Shown: positions 14,465 to 23,976 of the stretch, in pieces
How the letters are laid out: each line of letters begins with the position of its first letter
How positions within the stretch are numbered: the stretch's first letter is position 1
Assembly: GCA_018822805.1 (NCBI GenBank)
Contig: JAHJJU010000016.1
Coordinates: forward strand, 1-47,933
Direction of reading: 5' to 3'
DNA: 47,933 nt
DNA from: a bacterium
Lineage (GTDB): Bacteria > Campylobacterota > Campylobacteria > Campylobacterales > Sulfurovaceae
The notes under the pieces: generated by a model
What the model was told of the DNA's origin: nothing
Seen by the model: the letters and a program-made list of their open reading frames with translations, nothing else
The model's database searches: none
Position numbers and translations under genes: made by a program

Positions 14465-15679
14465 TTACACACTCTCCCCTGCTTGCATTCCACATACCCA
14501 TGCAAAGTGCAGGTTAAATCCACCACGATCTCCATCAACATCCAGTACTTCACCTGTAAAATAGAGCCCTTTTTCTTTTTTTGATTCCATGGTTTTGGCA
14601 TCAACTTCACGTGTATCGACACCACCTGTTGCTACTTCTGCACCTTTATAGCCCCTACTTCCATTTACGGTAAAAGAGAATGCTTTTATTTGATTGACCA
14701 TCGATTCTAATTGAATTGTGTTTGATGAAATCGAACCTACAGTAGCTTTATCTAGTTTTAATGGCTCTAAAATTGGTCTTATGAGCTTTTTATTAATAAA
14801 CCCTTGCAACCACACCTCTAAAGGTTTTTGGCTCTTTTTACGTAGACTTTTTTTCATCAAAGCTATGAGTTGATCACTGCTCATCTTTGGCATAAGATCC
14901 AACTCTAATGTTACCGTAGAGCTGTGAATAAGTTGTTCCATAACAAAACGACTAATGTCTAAAATAGCCAACCCAGAGATACCATAAGCTGTAAAGAGTA
15001 CATCACCCTGCTTTTGAATGGCTTGATTTCCCTGCTTTAAGCTTACCCTACTCTCTACTTTGACTCCAGCTAGCTCTTTTAAATCTTTACGTGGAGAAGT
15101 AAGCTGGACTAAGGTAGGAAAATCTTTTATGATGTTATGACCAAAATGTTGAGCAAAACGTACCCCATCGATAACCCCACCCAGTTGAGGTGCAGAAATA
15201 TGTCCCGTAGCAATAACCACTTTAGGTGTGCTCACTTTTCCTTGAGTATGCTTTATGACATAAAGGTTGTTTTCTTTATGTATCTGTTGAACTGTAACAT
15301 TACAACGAATCTCAACGCCCAGTTCTTCACATTCACACGCCAACAACTCCACCACCGACAATGCTTGAAGCGACATAGGAAAAACTTTACCCTCTTTTCC
15401 TTCAATCAGCTCCAAACCAATGGATTTAAAAAATTGTTTGATAGACTGATAACTGTACCCCTCAAAGACTTGAGCAATAAATTTTAGGTTATGTGAATAA
15501 AATCTATCCAAAGTAGGGCGTTGATTGCTAATGTTACATTTACCATTACCTGTGGCTAAAAGCTTTTTGCCTACTTTGTTGTTTTTCTCTAAAATAAGCA
15601 CCTTTTTACCCCGTCGTGCAGCAACAATGGCTGTAACCATTCCACTGGCTCCTGCACCTATGATTACTACGTTGACCAT
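14465..15679 (-). CDS. BaiN/HI0933-family FAD-dependent oxidoreductase
   Basis: The protein is a flavoprotein of the HI0933/YhiN/BaiN family. Its N-terminus (VVIIGAGASGMVTAI) is a dinucleotide-binding Rossmann motif, followed by the family's characteristic KVGKKLLATGNGKCNISN, and the C-terminus has TGEVLDVDGDRGGFNLHFAW, which closes the FAD site. It has 404 residues from the ATG. The substrate of this family is generally unknown. I chose ATG 15679, which shares a base with the stop of the upstream GIY-YIG gene (TGATG) and has GGAGA upstream. It is thus coupled to the last gene of the accessory block even though it is a widespread core gene, so it may depend on that block's transcription. Confidence 0.87.
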   Translation of the reverse strand: MVNVVIIGAGASGMVTAIVAARRGKKVLILEKNNKVGKKLLATGNGKCNISNQRPTLDRFYSHNLKFIAQVFEGYSYQSIKQFFKSIGLELIEGKEGKVFPMSLQALSVVELLACECEELGVEIRCNVTVQQIHKENNLYVIKHTQGKVSTPKVVIATGHISAPQLGGVIDGVRFAQHFGHNIIKDFPTLVQLTSPRKDLKELAGVKVESRVSLKQGNQAIQKQGDVLFTAYGISGLAILDISRFVMEQLIHSSTVTLELDLMPKMSSDQLIALMKKSLRKKSQKPLEVWLQGFINKKLIRPILEPLKLDKATVGSISSNTIQLESMVNQIKAFSFTVNGSRGYKGAEVATGGVDTREVDAKTMESKKEKGLYFTGEVLDVDGDRGGFNLHFAWVCGMQAGESV

Positions 15680-16821
15680 CACTCTCTCCGTTTCACTATA
15701 GATTCATTTTTGGCATCATAGAGATAGTAAATAACTTTACCACTAATTATTAAATCTATCACCTCGTCAATCACCTCTAAAGGAGCGATGAACCACTCTC
15801 TTGTAGTGTGACTATTTCCATCTTTATCAAAAATCTCAATATCTAAACAACTCTTTCCAAAGAACTTATGGAGCAGTTGTTCTAGTTTCTGTGGGTTCAT
15901 ATTGAAACATTGATAAATCGAGATAATAGAAACAGCTGACATAAGATAAGTGGGTTCATTGATGGCATTGGCAACTCTTTTATGCACATCTTCTTTGGAA
16001 AATCCTATCTTATAAAGGTTTTTTTTCGTAGCAATTCTATCATCATGGCTAAGAGATTTTAAGACATAGATAAAACCATAACTTTGATCATTTTCAAAAA
16101 TTCTATCTTGATGTTGACTAATTAAATATCCATCCTCATAAAGCCCTTTAGCCAAAGAGCGTAATAGCATATTGGAATATGTTCCATTTTCAAAGATACA
16201 TCGTGTTCGACCATCTACTTTACTATTTTTATCTTTTTTGGCATCAATAATTTTTTCTAAATATCCCATAACTCCTTTTAATATAAAAAAAGTTCCTGCA
16301 CTTAAATGTTTCTCATTAAATTTACCCATGCTTCTACTACCCACTTTTAAATCAGCCTGACAAGCTTGAAACAAAGCTTCATACGCTTCAAAGTTTTCAC
16401 ATACTTTTCTTTGGGCGACAAAATCAGCATCGGCTCTATTTTTATCTATTTTAGGAACATGTTTGAGCTTAAATATATCTTCTGCATCCTCTTCAAAAAT
16501 GCCCAAGATATCGTTATTTAAAATATCATCAATGGATTCTATAGCCAAAATTTCCAACAAATTAAATCTATCATACGCGTTAAGAGATTCTGACTTATTC
16601 ACATCTTCTCGTATGCCTTGCAGTCGTGAATATAATCTTCTCTCTTGCATATTATCTGATTTTGTGGGTTCATATCCCTCTCGCTCGACAAAACTATTGA
16701 TCTCTTCAAAAGAAGCAATCAACCTGTCATCGGCTGTTAATATAGGATTCTTAGCTTTCACCTCACCCAAAAGCCCCAAAGGGTCGTTGTTTAAAATATC
16801 ATCCAGTGTAAACTTAGCCAT
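15679..16821 (-). CDS. GIY-YIG (T5orf172-type) nuclease-like protein of the accessory block
   Basis: This 380-residue protein has a C-terminal GIY-YIG nuclease domain of the T5orf172/MUG113 kind: the first strand GFIYVLK (249-255), then LYKIGFS (269-275), an arginine in VHKRVANA (R282), and the likely metal-binding glutamate in QKLEQLLHKFF (E314), closing with REWF (341-344). The N-terminal 240 residues are not a known domain but contain the motif DDILNND twice (residues 7-13 and 98-104), each followed by a Leu/Ile-Gly pattern. It overlaps the helicase gene by eight bases and the flavoprotein by one. In context it is the candidate DNA-cutting component. Activity is inferred, not shown. Confidence 0.8.
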   Translation of the reverse strand: MAKFTLDDILNNDPLGLLGEVKAKNPILTADDRLIASFEEINSFVEREGYEPTKSDNMQERRLYSRLQGIREDVNKSESLNAYDRFNLLEILAIESIDDILNNDILGIFEEDAEDIFKLKHVPKIDKNRADADFVAQRKVCENFEAYEALFQACQADLKVGSRSMGKFNEKHLSAGTFFILKGVMGYLEKIIDAKKDKNSKVDGRTRCIFENGTYSNMLLRSLAKGLYEDGYLISQHQDRIFENDQSYGFIYVLKSLSHDDRIATKKNLYKIGFSKEDVHKRVANAINEPTYLMSAVSIISIYQCFNMNPQKLEQLLHKFFGKSCLDIEIFDKDGNSHTTREWFIAPLEVIDEVIDLIISGKVIYYLYDAKNESIVKRRE

Positions 16822-18736
16822 TCATTCGCTCTCGTTTTAGATTTTTTAAAAACACCACTGCTTCAGCCATGCGTTTTTCTAAAGCATCTTCTGTCTGTAT
16901 ATGAGGAAGTCTGCCTGTTTTTTGTTTAAACGTAATAATCTTAGGGTAAAGGATGACGGCTTCCTCTTCACTCATGCTCATTCGTGTTGATGCTATGGAC
17001 TCTTGAATCAGTTTTAAAACCCCTGTGGTGACCGATTTGGACAAAATCTCAAAAGCTTTTTGAAAAGGGTTAATGGTATCAATTAAATCAATATGCAACT
17101 CATCAATATTGACAAATTTACCTGCCATACGAATAAACTTCTTATCTCCCTCTTCTTTAATCTCACCATTTTTAATCACCGAATCTACCACCACATGCTG
17201 TCGCAGTGACTCTACCTCTTTCTCATCAAGTTCAGGATACTTCACACGAATAATCTTAGGTATCAACACCTGATTAATCACCTCTGCATCAACATTTTCA
17301 GGCATCGCTTTTAACATCTGTTCATCTTGTAAAATGGTGGCTTTTAGGTCATTTAAATCAGAAGCTATAATCTCTCCCACTCTTTTTGAACTTGGAAGTT
17401 TAAAGCCTTTAATTTTTACTTCACCCTTTCTATTTTCTGTCTCATCATGCTCAAATCGTGGTTTAAACTTGAAACTAGGGGCTAAAACCTGTTCCATAAG
17501 TAAAGAGGCTGTGATGGCTTTGAGCATGTTATTCACCGAGAGTTTCACTTCATCATTATCAGCATCGGGTTGAGCGATTAAGTTGGTAAACTGTGCATGG
17601 GTTTTATTGTCGCTGTCACGTGTGGCACGACCAATAATTTGTATGATTTCGGTGAGTGAACTTCTGTACCCTACCGTTAAAGCGTGTTCACAATAGGGCC
17701 AATCAAACCCCTCTTTTGCCATGCCCAAAGCGATAATCAAATCCATATCATCAATGTGTTTAATATTTCTAAGATAAGTAGCAACCTTTTCACGCTCTTT
17801 GGGTTCATCATTAACCAAGTCAGCTACTTTGAGAAGTTTTCCATCGCTATGTCGTTTAATGATGATAATGCCATCCTCACTCACATCCACCACCTCACCG
17901 ATAATACTTAAAATGGTATCAACCTCTTTGTGTTTGTCTTTGGTTGATTCACCTGAATTGACATTGGGAATATGTAAAATGGTCTTTTTATCGGTATCAA
18001 GTATCTCATCGATGGCAGAGGTGTATCGACCTTGGTAAAAATGATAACCAATCCCCAACGATTTTAAAAACTCATAACCATTAAGCTGTTCATAGTAGTC
18101 ATAACTCACTTTTCTAAACTTCTCTTCATCTTCAGGTAACAACACAGGCACAGAATCTCCCCGAAAGTAAGAACCCGTCATCGCCACCATATGAGCTGTA
18201 GAGTTTGCCATAAGCAATCGAATCAACTCCCCCAATCTGTTGTCACCATCGGCTGAGACATGGTGAAACTCATCAATCGCCAATAGAGTGTTATCAAAGG
18301 CTGACTCCTCCAAGCCTTCAAAAGCAAAACGTAAAGTAGCATGAGTACAGATAAGAATTTTTGCATCACTTTTCAAAAATGCTTTAAACGCCTCTACCTT
18401 ACTCTTTTCAACGCCAGAGGTACAGAGGTTGTAGGTCTCATTCACCTCCCAATCGGCATAGAATCCATGACTTTTTAAATCGGTACTAGCAAAAGAAGCA
18501 CCAATGGACTTTTCAGGAACAGCTACAATCACTTTATCTAGCCCTTGGTTGAGTAGCTTATCAAGAGCTAAAAACATCAATGCACGAGATTTACCCGAAG
18601 CAGGAGGAGCTTTAAGCAGTAAATATTGAGCATCTCTTGACTCATAAGCACGGCTTTGCATGGTTCTCATGCCCATTTCATTGGTTGATTGACTTTTACC
18701 TGTTTGAGCATAGCTTACTTCTACTAGATTTGGCAT
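16814..18736 (-). CDS. SF2 DEAD/DEAH-type helicase of the accessory block
   Basis: This 640-residue protein is a superfamily 2 helicase or translocase. Walker A is APPASGKS (43-50), motif II is DEFH (155-158) in LLAIDEFHHV, motif III is MTGSY (186-190), and motif VI is QIIGRATR (366-373), the arrangement seen in type III restriction subunits and related defence helicases. The C-terminal 200 residues match no domain I can name. Its last codons overlap the GIY-YIG start. A 117-base AT-rich gap with a purine tract separates it from the AlbA_2 ATPase upstream. It presumably moves on DNA for the neighbouring nuclease and methyltransferase; the start ATG has only a weak ribosome site. Confidence 0.85.
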   Translation of the reverse strand: MPNLVEVSYAQTGKSQSTNEMGMRTMQSRAYESRDAQYLLLKAPPASGKSRALMFLALDKLLNQGLDKVIVAVPEKSIGASFASTDLKSHGFYADWEVNETYNLCTSGVEKSKVEAFKAFLKSDAKILICTHATLRFAFEGLEESAFDNTLLAIDEFHHVSADGDNRLGELIRLLMANSTAHMVAMTGSYFRGDSVPVLLPEDEEKFRKVSYDYYEQLNGYEFLKSLGIGYHFYQGRYTSAIDEILDTDKKTILHIPNVNSGESTKDKHKEVDTILSIIGEVVDVSEDGIIIIKRHSDGKLLKVADLVNDEPKEREKVATYLRNIKHIDDMDLIIALGMAKEGFDWPYCEHALTVGYRSSLTEIIQIIGRATRDSDNKTHAQFTNLIAQPDADNDEVKLSVNNMLKAITASLLMEQVLAPSFKFKPRFEHDETENRKGEVKIKGFKLPSSKRVGEIIASDLNDLKATILQDEQMLKAMPENVDAEVINQVLIPKIIRVKYPELDEKEVESLRQHVVVDSVIKNGEIKEEGDKKFIRMAGKFVNIDELHIDLIDTINPFQKAFEILSKSVTTGVLKLIQESIASTRMSMSEEEAVILYPKIITFKQKTGRLPHIQTEDALEKRMAEAVVFLKNLKRERMNG

Positions 18737-18821
18737 TTTTATTCCTGTTTTTATTGATTTTTCTTTTTTCTAAATAATAAAATAAAAAGAAACAAATTCC
18801 TATTTTATGGGAAATACTTTA

Positions 18822-18858
18822 ATTTCTTTTTCTTTTTTCTTTTTTTTCTTTTTTTATT
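18822..18858. repeat. Pyrimidine/purine tract at the AlbA_2 gene end
   Basis: The plus strand is nearly pure T and C for about 35 bases (T-runs broken by single C), covering the last bases of the AlbA_2 gene and the start of its 3' gap to the helicase. In transcript orientation it is an A/G tract. It could be slippage-prone or simply AT-rich spacer. Confidence 0.4.
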
Positions 18859-20500
18859 TGGCAATAAAATAGACCATATTACTTCGTATACCATCTCTCG
18901 ATAAAATACCTTCATCTCTCATTTTATAAACAACTCCTCTTAGATATTTTAAATCTAAATCATCCATTCTACTCTGTATTTGAGATATTTTACTTTTTGG
19001 ATGAGCTTTTAAATCTTCAATAATTAAAGCTCTCAAAACATGCTCTTCCATAGTTTTAAGACTAGGTTTTAAATCATGTTTCATAGAAGCTAAAATCTTA
19101 GGATTAACCATATACATCAATCCTTTTGTTTTTCCCTCAGTGATTAATATTTTTTTCTCTATCAATTTATCAATCCAGTTTCTAAGTCTATCATCATCTT
19201 TTAATTGCAAAATTTTAGCTAAATCATATCCTGAAATTTTTTTCTCCCTTACAATTACACCTAAAGCGATAATTTCTTTTTGATTAAGCTGATAATGTTC
19301 TCCTAAAAAATATAAAATATGTAAAGTTTCATTATCTATAATATTGGCATAAATAGTAATATTCACGTAGTTTATATCGTTCTCAATCACTGGAAATCTT
19401 TTTGCATCATGACTTAATTTTTCATAAATAAGGTCATATCCACTTCCCTCTCCTTCCATAAGGTTCATGGCTGTAAAAGTGTCTATAAGTTTTGGATTTC
19501 TTCGTTGCCGTTGATGCAAAATATTATCTTTGGTAACACCAAGAGGAAGCCCTCCTGGGCTTTGTATCTCTAATCTATCACTATAGACCGAAATAAAAAT
19601 ATCACCTGAAATGGTATAAGATTTATGAGCAAAAGCATTAATTAAAAGCTCTCGAATCACATCTTTATTATAATGTCTAATCTCTTTTCTAAAAAGTCCA
19701 TCAGAAATTTCAAAACTATAGGTTAACTCTATAGCTTCTCTCTCTATCTCCAAAAGAAGCTCTTTAGGATTAAATTGATTAAAATGCCACTCAACTTTAC
19801 GAACTTTCTCTTCATTTTCATTATAGACAATGTATTGCACGGTCAATGGATAGTTAAGTCGGCTTCTCTGTTTAAAATCTCCAAGCCACAAAATACCAAG
19901 GTTGGTCAAGAATCTATCTTCATGAAGTCTATAATATTCCAATATATCTTCATCGCTCTTCTCTTTTATAAACGCTGAAACCCTTGAAGAGTTACGTATT
20001 TCATCTACAAATTTTTGAATATTTTTAGACTCTATTTGAGAAAGGTCTATTTTTTTTAAAACCAACTCCCATTGAAAAGCTCCTTTTTCATGAGCCAAGC
20101 GTGTAAGTTCTTCACCTTTTATGGGTACACATTCATCACCCACACGCATAAAAACTTTTCCTTCACTGGTTGTGGCGATGAGTTGTTTTGAAGGGTAAAT
20201 TTGAATCATAAAGTATTCAGCACCATTATCATGAGTATGAAGTTCAGGATTGACCAACCCCACACCATCTGTCAAACTTCTTAGCGTTTTAACTACTTTG
20301 TTCATATCTTCAGGATTAATCTTTTGCTCTTTTGGTGGAAGTTTATCTCTATCTTCAATACCTATAAAAAGGTATCCACCTTGTGCATTGGCTAAACAGA
20401 CACAAGTTTTTGCTAACTCTTTTAGATTGGCACTTTTACCCACTACTTTTTTAAGGCTTTTATATTCTATGGTACTGTTTTCATACTCTTCTAGTTTCAT
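18854..20500 (-). CDS. AlbA_2/GHKL ATPase DNA-binding protein of the accessory block
   Basis: The 548-residue protein starts with an AlbA_2 (Schlafen-type) domain: the EYENSTIEYKS opening and LANAQGGYLFIGIED (36-50). A GHKL-type ATPase core follows (HATPase_c_4): N-box ELLINAFAH (284-292), SPGGLP (314-319), and a glycine-rich EGEGSGYDL (349-357). The C-terminal 150 residues look like winged helices. Such proteins are often annotated as ATP-binding regulators or RecG-like. Its ATG overlaps the methyltransferase stop in an ATGA junction, so the two are translated together. It could be the ATPase member of an Hma-like defence set, or a regulator of it. Confidence 0.82.
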   Translation of the reverse strand: MKLEEYENSTIEYKSLKKVVGKSANLKELAKTCVCLANAQGGYLFIGIEDRDKLPPKEQKINPEDMNKVVKTLRSLTDGVGLVNPELHTHDNGAEYFMIQIYPSKQLIATTSEGKVFMRVGDECVPIKGEELTRLAHEKGAFQWELVLKKIDLSQIESKNIQKFVDEIRNSSRVSAFIKEKSDEDILEYYRLHEDRFLTNLGILWLGDFKQRSRLNYPLTVQYIVYNENEEKVRKVEWHFNQFNPKELLLEIEREAIELTYSFEISDGLFRKEIRHYNKDVIRELLINAFAHKSYTISGDIFISVYSDRLEIQSPGGLPLGVTKDNILHQRQRRNPKLIDTFTAMNLMEGEGSGYDLIYEKLSHDAKRFPVIENDINYVNITIYANIIDNETLHILYFLGEHYQLNQKEIIALGVIVREKKISGYDLAKILQLKDDDRLRNWIDKLIEKKILITEGKTKGLMYMVNPKILASMKHDLKPSLKTMEEHVLRALIIEDLKAHPKSKISQIQSRMDDLDLKYLRGVVYKMRDEGILSRDGIRSNMVYFIAK

Positions 20501-23151
20501 TTTCTAACTTCCTTCTCCACCATCTCCTCATACAACCCAAACAAATAAGCCAATCGCTCTTCATCACTGCTAAATGGTTTGGCTCTATAACATCGCTCTA
20601 CAGCTAGGTCAAGCTGATGGTGTGCTTCTTTTAATCCTTCTGGCATTTTGTCGGGGTCGTAGAGTTGGGCTAAGGTTTTTTCGGAGTGTCTTTCTCGTTC
20701 ATCTAAGACAGCAAAGGTGTGTTCGGTGAGTGCTTCTTTTTGTTTTTTGGTTATGGTTGGGAAAGGGAAGGTGTTGTAACTCAATATTGATGAATATCGA
20801 AAATCAGTTTTTAAATATCCTGAAACAGCTTTTACCCATATTAAATGAATTTTTGATGATAAAATAGAAAAAATATAAATATCAGAATCATATATAACTT
20901 GTGCAGAATCTGCAATAATGATATTTTTATCTTGAACTCCACATGGTATATAATCTCTTCTTGACGAACCAACTCTAGGAATTAAAATAGAATGTTTTTT
21001 AGCTTCTCTTCTATCTCTAAATTGATGAGGACGCTCAGATAGTTTTCTAGTGCCTTTATCGGTACTTTCTAACCTCATTTTATAAACTTTATCTATTCGT
21101 GCTTTTATTAGAATAGATTTTTCAACCTCAGAAACTTGATTATCATCAATCCATAAAACCCACCTAAATGTATTTTTCATAAATTCAGCAGAGCCTATTA
21201 ATTTCTTTACATAATTTTGAAAGAAAGGATATTCATTGATTAATTCATCTTTTTCTTTGTCATTTAAAATAAGATTTCCTCCATCAAAGGGACTGTTTCC
21301 TCTTAACATTTTTGGAATATTAGAAATAGGATTTGAACGTCTATTAATTACAATATCTTTACTATCAACTAAATAAGCATTTATATTATTCACATTTTGT
21401 TTTATATTGTTTCTATAGATATATTTTGAACTTTTTGATAGGTGTCTAAGTCCAATAATAGCAACGGTTACCCCAGCATTTGACTTTGCATTATTTGACC
21501 ATTTAAAAGATTGGTGAGCAAAAAATATCTCTAAATTTTTATCAAAAATATGTGACCAAAGCATCGCTACTTGTTCACCTTGACTGATTGAATTGGTTGT
21601 TACAAAAGCATATTTTGCATTTATATTTTGTATATATTTCGCTCCTAAATAAAACCAACAAGCAATATAATCTAAATTTTTATAATTTTTAAACCCTTTA
21701 AAAACAAGTGCTAAGTCCTCTTTTTGCTCTCTGTTTTGCATACTTGAACCCAAATAAGGAGGATTCCCCAAAATATAAATTTCGTCTTCTTCCTCTTTGG
21801 GGCAAACTTCTTCCCAGTTCAGGCGTGTGGCGTTGCCATGGCTGATGTTTCCACCATTTTTTAGGGGCAAAGAGGGGGCTGTTCTGCCGAACTCTTTGTA
21901 AAAAAGTAGATTCATTTGATGCTCTGCCAACCACAAAGAGAGTTTGGCGACTTCGTGGGCGAAATCATCGAGTTCTATGCCGTAAAATTGTGAAAGATGC
22001 ATTTCAGAGAAAACAAAACTTTTCTGTTTTGCCAAGATATCCAACTGTTTGAGTATCTTCATTTCTAAAATTCTAAGCTCTTTATAGGCAATAATCAAAA
22101 AATTACCACTTCCACAAGCAGGATCAAAAATCTTTAAATTGGCAATACGCACCGTAAGGCTTTGTAGTTTTCGTTTGTTCTCTTTGGCGTTTTCAAACTC
22201 CTCATAAAGCTCATCTAAAAAAAGAGGTTGAATCACTTTCATGATGTTGGGTACAGAAGTATAATGCATTCCCATACCACCACGGTATTCACTGCTTACC
22301 ACAGCTTGAATCATCGAACCAAAAATATCAGGATTAATCTCGGCCCAACCCAAAGAACCGATCTCAATAAGAATGGCTCGTGATTTGGTCGTGAACTTTG
22401 GGATAGGGTAGGTGGTTTGAAACAAGCCACCATTTACATAGGGAAACGCTTTGAGGTAAGCTGGTAGACGCTCTTCTCTATTTTGGGTATTAAAAACTTC
22501 AAAAAGTCTTAACAGATAGGCATCAAGATCAGAGCCATCCGTGTTGGTGTGCGATTTAATGGCATTGGTAAATTGATTGTCTTCAAAAATGAGCGTATCT
22601 TCAGCGAAATAACAAAAAAGCAGTCTGGTTAAAAAAATATTGAGTGCGTGGGTATCTTCTTTATTGTGTGGTGGATTATGTTTGACAATCTCATCGAAAA
22701 GATTGGCAAGTTTTCTCGAGGCTTTTACATCGGCAATGTTCTCATCTTGATACTGGGCTTTTTCCATTCCTGCTAAGGGTAAAAAGAAAGCATAGTGTTT
22801 AGAGAGGTCTTCAAACACAATATCTAAACTGTCTCCTGTTTTAGTATCGTAAGCCAAAAGGGTTTTAAAGTCGGTCACCATAATAAAACGGGGTTTTTGC
22901 TTAAGAGGTTGGGTCTCATTTTTGAGCCTATCTATGGTAGAATGAAGATTATTTTGAGCTATTTTAAAGAAGAGTTTTTTACGATGGGTCAACTCTCCTT
23001 TGCTCTCTAACTGATTTAAATTCCCTTTTTTCAGTCGGCTAATGGTTGCTTTGGGTTCGCCAAAAGCGAGTAAAAAGTCAAATATAAACTGCTCTTGTTC
23101 AAATGTTTCAACAAGTTGTTGAATCTTCTCTTCTATCTCAATAATGGTCAT
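20497..23151 (-). CDS. YeeA/MmeI-like class I SAM-dependent DNA adenine methyltransferase
   Basis: The 884-residue protein has the layout of MmeI/YeeA-type DNA methyltransferases. An N-terminal domain (1-130) contains VTDFKTLLAYDTKT; a helical spacer has RLLFCYFAEDTLIFE (176-190); GMHYTSVPNI (294-303) precedes SAM motif I DPACGSGN (343-350); and catalytic motif IV NPPY (463-466) predicts N6-adenine methylation. The 600-884 region is the probable target-recognition domain. I see no convincing D-(E)XK nuclease centre at the N-terminus, unlike true type IIL enzymes, so cutting is probably left to a partner. ATG 23151 follows AAAGGCGACC. It overlaps the AlbA_2 gene by four bases. Together with the helicase and GIY-YIG genes it forms a predicted defence operon. 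Confidence 0.87.
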   Translation of the reverse strand: MTIIEIEEKIQQLVETFEQEQFIFDFLLAFGEPKATISRLKKGNLNQLESKGELTHRKKLFFKIAQNNLHSTIDRLKNETQPLKQKPRFIMVTDFKTLLAYDTKTGDSLDIVFEDLSKHYAFFLPLAGMEKAQYQDENIADVKASRKLANLFDEIVKHNPPHNKEDTHALNIFLTRLLFCYFAEDTLIFEDNQFTNAIKSHTNTDGSDLDAYLLRLFEVFNTQNREERLPAYLKAFPYVNGGLFQTTYPIPKFTTKSRAILIEIGSLGWAEINPDIFGSMIQAVVSSEYRGGMGMHYTSVPNIMKVIQPLFLDELYEEFENAKENKRKLQSLTVRIANLKIFDPACGSGNFLIIAYKELRILEMKILKQLDILAKQKSFVFSEMHLSQFYGIELDDFAHEVAKLSLWLAEHQMNLLFYKEFGRTAPSLPLKNGGNISHGNATRLNWEEVCPKEEEDEIYILGNPPYLGSSMQNREQKEDLALVFKGFKNYKNLDYIACWFYLGAKYIQNINAKYAFVTTNSISQGEQVAMLWSHIFDKNLEIFFAHQSFKWSNNAKSNAGVTVAIIGLRHLSKSSKYIYRNNIKQNVNNINAYLVDSKDIVINRRSNPISNIPKMLRGNSPFDGGNLILNDKEKDELINEYPFFQNYVKKLIGSAEFMKNTFRWVLWIDDNQVSEVEKSILIKARIDKVYKMRLESTDKGTRKLSERPHQFRDRREAKKHSILIPRVGSSRRDYIPCGVQDKNIIIADSAQVIYDSDIYIFSILSSKIHLIWVKAVSGYLKTDFRYSSILSYNTFPFPTITKKQKEALTEHTFAVLDERERHSEKTLAQLYDPDKMPEGLKEAHHQLDLAVERCYRAKPFSSDEERLAYLFGLYEEMVEKEVRK

Positions 23152-23170: not shown

Positions 23171-23845
23171 TTATTTATTTTTCTTCTCAAGTTCCTCAAC
23201 TATTTTTGCAGTAGCCAATGTCTCTTCATCGTCGGCACCAAACACTTTTGTTTGTACCTCTAACGCTTTTTTATAGTAGGTTAATGCAGAACTGTATTTC
23301 TCGGTTTTATTATATATTTTAGCAATATCCAAATAGGTCGAAAGTACATCTTCATGAAACTCACCCGATATTGCTCGGTCAATCTCTAATGCTTTAAAAT
23401 AGTACGTTAACGCATTGGCATTGTCCTCTAATGCATCATAGGAAGAAGCTACATTATAATAAGTTGTTGCTCTCTCTGTACTGTTTCTATCTAGAACCAC
23501 TTCATCAATTTTCATTGCTTTGCTGTAATACTCCAATGCTTTATGGTACTCTTTTAATTCATCGTAATCTAAACCAATATTATTATAATCCAATGATATC
23601 TCAGCACTCTGCTCTTTATAATGTTTTAAATCTACTTCCAACTGTTTTAAATCATAGTTTAACGCTTCTTTATAATCACCTTCCTCAAAATATTTTTGTG
23701 AAAGTTCATAATTGGATTGGTCCGATTTTCCACCTAGAAGTTTTTGGGTTGTCTCTCTGTTCTTTTCACTACTCTCTTCTATACATCCTATAAAACATAA
23801 TGACAGCCCTACCAATAAAGCGATGGTTACTATTTTTTTATTCAT
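23171..23845 (-). CDS. TPR-repeat lipoprotein
   Basis: The protein has a lipoprotein signal (MNKKIVTIALLVGLSLCFIGC; lipidated cysteine at about residue 21) followed by tetratricopeptide repeats with the typical LNYDLKQLE, YNNIGLDYDELKEYHKALEYY and YYNVASSYDALEDNANALTYY spacing, about four to five units. It should sit on a membrane surface and mediate protein contacts. GGAGA lies six bases before ATG 23845 (ATG 23848 is possible); the frame is open to 23869 but without a ribosome site. Its stop is 19 bases from the methyltransferase start, so it may be the first gene of the accessory operon, or simply its upstream neighbour. Function unknown. Confidence 0.8.
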   Translation of the reverse strand: MNKKIVTIALLVGLSLCFIGCIEESSEKNRETTQKLLGGKSDQSNYELSQKYFEEGDYKEALNYDLKQLEVDLKHYKEQSAEISLDYNNIGLDYDELKEYHKALEYYSKAMKIDEVVLDRNSTERATTYYNVASSYDALEDNANALTYYFKALEIDRAISGEFHEDVLSTYLDIAKIYNKTEKYSSALTYYKKALEVQTKVFGADDEETLATAKIVEELEKKNK

Positions 23846-23976
23846 CATTCTCTCCATATATAAATTCAATACATTATAACACTTAGCCTGTGAACTACTG
23901 CATATAATCTTTCTATTTTACCATAAATAAACTCCATTTTTTGTATGATGTGAAAATTAAATTTAAAGGATAATTT

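What the first reader, a model, noticed from the sequence alone, without database searches (positions are those of the whole stretch)
15679..23151. Four-gene accessory block resembling an Hma-type defence system with an added GIY-YIG nuclease
Methyltransferase (YeeA/MmeI-like), AlbA_2/GHKL ATPase, SF2 helicase and GIY-YIG nuclease genes run in one direction, with ATGA overlaps between the methyltransferase and AlbA_2 genes and between helicase and nuclease. A helicase, methylase and ATPase set (Hma) is a known predicted defence class in PADLOC-type surveys. The methyltransferase shows no clear nuclease motif of its own, so the GIY-YIG protein would supply cutting. A four-part system of this composition may be an undescribed subtype. 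The block lies between core genes.
Basis: partly seen in the sequence, partly recalled or inferred. Interest (0 to 1): 0.78.

Follow-up and report, generated by a model that had tools for sequence, protein, structure and literature searches.

The report
YeeABC-type restriction operon carrying Schlafen gene
This block is a bacterial anti-virus restriction operon of a type known from Bacillus (methylase, helicase, nuclease), into which a probable RNA-cutting 'suicide' gene has been slotted at a position where many relatives carry other, interchangeable defence genes.

Summary
The methyltransferase (20497-23151), SF2 helicase (16814-18736) and GIY-YIG protein (15679-16821) form a DnmA-YeeB-YeeC (YeeABC) operon: an MmeI-type N6-adenine methylase without its nuclease, plus a separate motor and nuclease. 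This cluster has been described as a possible 'Type I-like' R-M system. The helicase-nuclease pair is separated in only 2 of 90 relatives across many phyla.

The fourth gene (AlbA_2/GHKL/wHTH, 18854-20500) is not part of the core. It occupies an internal slot between methylase and helicase. That slot is filled in 35 of 80 comparable operons by exchangeable genes: Schlafen-type, RhuM or Fic in 30 of them, plus SIR2-HerA, TIR, STAND-Mrr, PrrC-like and Abi_C proteins.

Close relatives of the AlbA_2 gene elsewhere in the order follow the methylase gene of other R-M systems (HsdM, Eco57I-like). Its AlbA_2 domain matches Schlafen RNases in structure and in the spacing of the catalytic acids. I read it as a backup abortive-infection effector.

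Two same-genus genomes show the empty site: the 7.5-kb block replaces a 4-5 bp spacer. The core is known; the slot is the new part.

The parts
20497..23151 (-). DnmA/YeeA-type N6-adenine DNA methyltransferase (884 aa): MmeI architecture with degenerate N-terminal nuclease; FDPACGSGNF and NPPY motifs intact
   Evidence: Pfam MmeI_N/hel/Mtase/TRD/C; MmeI 5hr4 aligned from residue 84 only; no aligned D..ExK in 72 homologues
18854..20500 (-). Cargo: Schlafen-type AlbA_2 + GHKL ATPase + C-terminal winged-helix protein (548 aa), probable RNase backup effector; 4-nt ATGA overlap with the MTase gene
   Evidence: Pfam; Foldseek to DIP2311 and human SLFN11/12/13/14; E7/E12/D50 spacing equals SLFN13 E205/E210/D248; cargo position variable in relatives
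18737..18853 (-). 117-nt A/T-rich gap between cargo and helicase; possible separate expression signal for helicase-nuclease (not shown)
   Evidence: Sequence; promoter-like hits in the region no more frequent than in shuffles
16814..18736 (-). YeeB-type SF2 (DEFH-box) helicase/translocase, 640 aa
   Evidence: DEAD/ResIII/Helicase_C; Walker A, DEFH and motif VI invariant in 14 homologues
15679..16821 (-). YeeC-type protein: N-terminal region with an SH3-like barrel and C-terminal T5orf172 GIY-YIG nuclease domain, 380 aa; 8-nt overlap with helicase
   Evidence: T5orf172/MUG113; GIY-YIG residues Y252, K271-G273, R282, E314 conserved; AlphaFold pLDDT 88
14465..15682 (-). Left flank: HI0933-type flavoprotein, host gene next to the block in same-genus genomes too
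23171..23869 (-). Right flank: TPR lipoprotein gene, 19 nt upstream of the MTase; adjacent to the flavoprotein gene in empty-site genomes

Best explanation
The block is a horizontally acquired DnmA-YeeB-YeeC ('Type I-like') restriction-modification operon with an embedded Schlafen-type backup effector. The methylase marks one strand of an asymmetric site in the host genome (inferred from MmeI/DnmA). On unmodified invading DNA it recruits the helicase (translocation) and the GIY-YIG protein (cutting) (inferred). The AlbA_2-GHKL-wHTH protein, translationally coupled to the methylase, is not needed for restriction. It acts as a second layer that cleaves tRNA/rRNA or halts translation when restriction fails or is inhibited, as PrrC does in type I systems (inferred). 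Shown here: gene content, conserved three-gene core, degenerate methylase nuclease, exchangeable cargo slot, empty insertion site, Schlafen-like fold of the cargo protein.
For: Core: helicase directly followed by GIY-YIG in 88 of 90 loci; MTase upstream and adjacent (45) or separated only by same-strand cargo (34) in 79 loci, plus the window. It occurs in 13 of 81 genera of the order, many phyla and 229 plasmids. Same three-gene cluster described as DnmA-YeeB-YeeC, MmeI homologue without nuclease, 'Type I-like'. Slot specificity: inserts at MTase|helicase 34/79 against 2/90 at helicase|nuclease, p=1.6e-11. Cargo: AlbA_2, RhuM or Fic in 30 of 35 filled slots, with at least 25 changes of cargo class on the helicase tree. 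Close AlbA_2 homologues lie directly or one gene downstream of HsdM and other N6 methylases in other Campylobacterales, twice with 4-nt overlaps. Schlafen fold and acid spacing. Schlafen-HK-wHTH proteins are proposed backup suicidal effectors in BREX (PMC12839542). Empty site in two same-genus genomes.
Against: B. subtilis DnmA-YeeBC gave no protection against three phages and no restriction of transformation, so the type may be inactive or phage-specific. The second Schlafen acid is D in some close relatives, and the third is N in some remote ones. The AlbA_2 family was long annotated as transcription regulators, so the cargo could instead regulate the operon. The P0003 model is mediocre (pLDDT 70). 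No activity has been measured for this locus.
Confidence: 0.72

Rival explanations
1. The AlbA_2-GHKL-wHTH protein is a regulator of the R-M operon (silencing helicase and nuclease until methylation is established, or inducing them on infection), not an RNase effector.
For: C-terminal winged helices; the 117-nt gap before the helicase, with comparable gaps of about 100-190 nt in cargo-bearing Campylobacterales relatives (L020-L024, L028, L034), while methylase and helicase genes overlap when no cargo is present. The family's older annotation is as transcription regulators. RhuM and HTH-bearing Fic proteins in the same position could also be regulators.
Against: Slots also hold clear effectors (SIR2-HerA, TIR, STAND-Mrr, PrrC-like AAA_13, Abi_C). 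More than half of the operons have no cargo. The Schlafen acids are kept in most close homologues.
Confidence: 0.25
2. An obligate four-component defence system (Hma-like or a new subtype).
For: Same order and a 4-nt overlap; AlbA_2 recurs in 10 of 80 operons, five of them close homologues of 52-72% identity.
Against: 45 of 80 operons lack any cargo and 25 carry other cargo. AlbA_2 homologues occur with other R-M systems. Hma requires an m5C methylase.
Confidence: 0.05
3. A relic: only the methylase is active (orphan regulatory methylation), as proposed for B. subtilis; the remaining genes are decaying.
For: B. subtilis phenotype. Some relatives have split MTase or helicase ORFs (L029, L031, L034).
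Against: All four window ORFs are intact with invariant catalytic motifs. Helicase identity across the order is 62-78% with 640 aa kept. V. crassostreae dnmA and yeeB deletions raised sensitivity to some phages (reported in PMC9973331).
Confidence: 0.15

Closest known systems
DnmA-YeeB-YeeC (YeeABC) cluster of Bacillus subtilis; homologues in Vibrio crassostreae
   Same: MmeI-type N6 methylase without nuclease motif, SF2 helicase, T5orf172 GIY-YIG protein, same order and strand
   Different: Window operon carries an AlbA_2/Schlafen gene between methylase and helicase; B. subtilis has none there
Type IIL/IIG enzyme MmeI (5hr4)
   Same: Methyltransferase, helical spacer, TRD and C-terminal domains (about 800 aligned residues, E 2e-187)
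   Different: N-terminal endonuclease degenerate; motor and nuclease supplied by separate genes
Type I R-M loci with genes embedded between hsdS and hsdR (DarTG2 in EPEC; PrrC, known to me from memory)
   Same: Accessory defence gene(s) inserted at the modification|restriction junction
   Different: Unrelated restriction subunits: no HsdR/HsdS; MmeI-like MTase with its own TRD; GIY-YIG nuclease
Schlafen-minimal HK-wHTH backup effectors of BREX (PMC12839542)
   Same: AlbA_2/Schlafen domain, GHKL ATPase, winged helix; embedded in a methylation-based system
   Different: Host system is YeeABC, not BREX (no PglZ/BrxC)
Hma (PADLOC)
   Same: Contains a helicase, a methylase and an ATPase-fold protein
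   Different: Hma has an m5C methylase and different ATPase and helicase families; no Hma model appears for the helicase, AlbA_2 or GIY-YIG proteins

Membership tests
DnmA-YeeB-YeeC cluster | MmeI homologue lacking the N-terminal PD-ExK motif | tested here: met
DnmA-YeeB-YeeC cluster | SF2 helicase gene downstream on the same strand | tested here: met
   (one cargo gene between methylase and helicase)
DnmA-YeeB-YeeC cluster | T5orf172/GIY-YIG gene directly after the helicase | tested here: met
DnmA-YeeB-YeeC cluster | Sequence homology to B. subtilis YeeB and YeeC themselves | tested here: inconclusive
   Bacillus mediterraneensis operon L090 has the same three genes with a 64%-identical helicase and B. 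subtilis scores for the methylase model; the 168 YeeB/YeeC proteins were not aligned
DnmA-YeeB-YeeC cluster | Asymmetric-site m6A methylation; restriction of unmodified DNA | not testable with these tools
   Needs methylome sequencing and phage assays
Hma | m5C methyltransferase (HmaB) | tested here: not met
   N6-adenine MmeI-type MTase with NPPY motif; definition in PMC8565338
Hma | HmaA helicase / HmaC ATPase models | tested here: not met
   No Hma model among all listed PADLOC hits of P0001, P0002 and P0003; five weak hits of P0004 were not displayed
Type IIG/IIL (MmeI) | Endonuclease and methylase in one polypeptide (D..ExK in N-terminus) | tested here: not met
   PADLOC nevertheless scores P0004 as REase_MTase_IIG, 1036 bits
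Schlafen/AlbA_2 RNase | SLFN core fold | tested here: met
   Pfam SLFN_AlbA_2; Foldseek SLFN11/12/13/14 at E 2e-4 to 7e-4
Schlafen/AlbA_2 RNase | Three catalytic acids (SLFN13 E205, E210, D248) | tested here: met
   E7, E12, D50 at identical spacing; kept in most close homologues (E12 is D in three), varied in remote ones
Schlafen/AlbA_2 RNase | RNA cleavage | not testable with these tools
   Biochemistry needed
Type I R-M | HsdM/HsdS/HsdR subunits | tested here: not met
   none of HsdM_N, methylase_S or HsdR families

The most novel reading that the evidence does not exclude
The methylase|helicase junction of YeeABC operons is a dedicated exchange slot, equivalent to the hsdS|hsdR slot of type I systems. 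It draws on a shared pool of guard genes (Schlafen-GHKL-wHTH, RhuM, Fic, PrrC-like) that move between unrelated R-M types and fire when the host R-M complex is inhibited, so the R-M complex serves as the guarded sensor.
Probability: 0.3. Interest if true: 0.65.

Novelty: new variant of a known kind. Interest (0 to 1): 0.42.

Why it matters
DnmA-YeeBC is a widespread, poorly understood R-M type: 561 relatives were confirmed in a capped scan, and 229 plasmids carry the helicase. PADLOC reads its methylase as a lone type IIG enzyme. The variable slot between modification and restriction genes names 73 candidate defence genes by position in the relatives surveyed, and predicts that Schlafen-type RNases act as backup for restriction systems. 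That is directly testable in laboratory strains.

Tried and rejected
Hma: rejected on methylase type and absent models. Four-part obligate system: rejected by synteny. Type IIG enzyme: rejected on the missing nuclease. Phage origin: two partial phage matches only, and no AlbA_2 relative in viral contigs. Mobility signals: no tRNA and no flanking repeats of note. Promoters/terminators: no excess over shuffles, so the idea of a separate helicase promoter is unproven. Fold search of the GIY-YIG protein: only weak SH3-like matches to EF-P/eIF5A domains for residues 160-237; no known partner domain named, and absence is not evidence. Morgan 2009, the V. crassostreae paper, Payne 2024 and the bacterial Schlafen preprint are not held, so they are cited only through papers that quote them. 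The 80 genome-collection loci are the best matches to a Campylobacterota-based profile, so slot frequencies are for that sample; the Actinomycetota clade has no cargo.
Full report
Observation. The four ORFs are present on the minus strand in the order methyltransferase (20497-23151, 884 aa), AlbA_2 protein (18854-20500, 548 aa), helicase (16814-18736, 640 aa) and GIY-YIG protein (15679-16821, 380 aa). Pfam assigns the full MmeI domain set, SLFN_AlbA_2 plus HATPase_c_4, DEAD/ResIII/Helicase_C, and T5orf172/MUG113. The MTase-AlbA_2 overlap is ATGA. The helicase-nuclease overlap is 8 nt, not ATGA. There is a 117-nt gap between AlbA_2 and helicase.

What the core is. The methylase aligns to MmeI (5hr4) from residue 84 to the end at E 2e-187, also as a profile. 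The N-terminal nuclease segment does not align, and no aligned D...ExK motif is present in 72 homologues. The methylase motifs FDPACGSGNF and NPPY are intact. The helicase has invariant Walker A, DEFH and motif VI. The nuclease keeps the GIY-YIG residues. This is the DnmA-YeeB-YeeC cluster. PMC7261158 and PMC9973331 describe DnmA as an MmeI homologue without nuclease, followed by a helicase (YeeB) and a T5orf172 protein (YeeC), suggested earlier to be Type I-like. B. subtilis is among the control genomes that score with the methylase model, and a Bacillus operon with the three genes was found (L090). PMC9973331 reports that the B. subtilis copy gave no phage protection, while V. crassostreae dnmA and yeeB deletions increased sensitivity to some phages.

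Not Hma. Hma is helicase, m5C methylase and ATPase (PMC8565338). The methylase class differs, and no Hma model appears among the PADLOC hits of the helicase, AlbA_2 or GIY-YIG proteins (five weak hits of the methylase were not displayed). PADLOC scores the methylase alone as a type IIG enzyme with 1036 bits, a label that its missing nuclease contradicts.

Conservation and slot. In the order, 17 of 299 genomes (13 of 81 genera) carry a helicase match, 16 of them at over 60% identity. A genome-collection scan confirmed 561 relatives and kept 80. With 15 larger regions fetched from the order and three duplicates dropped, synteny shows helicase directly followed by the GIY-YIG gene in 88 of 90 loci. 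The MTase-helicase distance is bimodal: 45 loci at or under 150 bp and 34 at 471-6120 bp filled with same-strand genes, none between. The difference between the two junctions has p=1.6e-11. Of 35 filled slots including the window, 30 carry an AlbA_2, RhuM or Fic gene, or a fragment of one. Others, sometimes together with these, include SIR2 + HerA, TIR, STAND NTPase + Mrr, AAA_13 (PrrC/RloC family), OLD-like AAA_15, Abi_C, KAP NTPase, dual-specificity phosphatase and DUF3800. On the helicase tree, cargo class needs at least 25 changes and AlbA_2 presence at least 8-9 (quick tree). AlbA_2 is therefore exchangeable cargo. This matches the embedding of defence genes between hsdS and hsdR in type I systems and the 'guilt-by-embedding' idea cited in PMC12255303.

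What the cargo gene is. The window AlbA_2 protein has homologues of 52-72% identity in five other slots (L034, L058, L064, L068, L091) and remote homologues (21-24%) in four more. Outside such operons, the closest full-length homologues in the order (56-73%) sit directly, or after one gene, 3' of other N6 methylases: HsdM in G023, Eco57I-like enzymes in G181 and G271, a 1230-aa DUF7149/DUF7814/Eco57I methylase in G259. Two of these have a 4-nt overlap. Truncated copies lie in two Eco57I-type loci in G035. The predicted structure (pLDDT 70) matches DIP2311 over its length and the Schlafen core of SLFN11/12/13/14. E7, E12 and D50 have exactly the spacing of SLFN13 E205, E210 and D248, the acids needed for tRNA/rRNA cleavage. 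A recent BREX survey describes Schlafen RNases fused to a minimal histidine kinase and wHTH as backup suicidal effectors (PMC12839542). By analogy I propose the same role here. A regulatory role remains the main rival.

Acquisition. In two genomes of the same genus (L118, L119) the HI0933 flavoprotein and TPR genes flank a 4-5 bp spacer in the same tig-clpP-def...purM neighbourhood. In the window the 7.5-kb block lies precisely there. There is no integrase, tRNA or repeat at the ends. The methylase starts 19 nt after the TPR stop codon and the nuclease stop overlaps the flavoprotein start, so the block may use the resident operon's promoter (inference). Relatives occur on plasmids (229 records, 116 of them predicted conjugative), which suggests a route.

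Mechanism. Shown: gene content, conserved core, degenerate nuclease, cargo exchange, insertion site, fold. Inferred: hemi-methylation of an asymmetric site, helicase-driven translocation with GIY-YIG cutting, and Schlafen-mediated RNA cleavage when restriction is blocked. Overall confidence in this package is 0.72; the core identity alone is near certain.

Noticed in passing
L020:6398-8127: The slot of G250 holds a TIR-domain gene next to a 295-aa gene with no Pfam match; by eye it might be a nucleotide cyclase, which would suggest a Pycsar-like pair. Untested guess.
   Followed up: no
L022:3566-6579 and L024:4044-7113: SIR2_2 + HerA-type ATPase pair embedded in the same slot in two genomes, as in known SIR2-HerA defence.
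   Followed up: partly
L023:2488-7081: AAA_13 (PrrC/RloC family) protein with a C-terminal RxxxE...H pattern, directly followed by an nSTAND3 + Mrr_cat protein, both inside the slot.
   Followed up: partly
L021:6945-7445, L024:7117-7605: Dual-specificity-phosphatase-like genes immediately upstream of the Fic gene in two slots; possible partner of the Fic protein.
   Followed up: no
L029:5868-8569, L031:5689-8414, L034:8658-10585: MTase or helicase ORFs split into two overlapping or adjacent frames in some relatives; could be phase variation, decay or assembly error.
   Followed up: no
L033:3291-7740: Divergent copy in which the MTase reads NPTY in place of NPPY, with two tandem C5-methylase-like genes upstream.
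   Followed up: no
L160:2-10780: Two tandem Eco57I-type methylase loci, each followed by an SMC/AAA gene and a near-identical truncated AlbA_2 gene.
   Followed up: no
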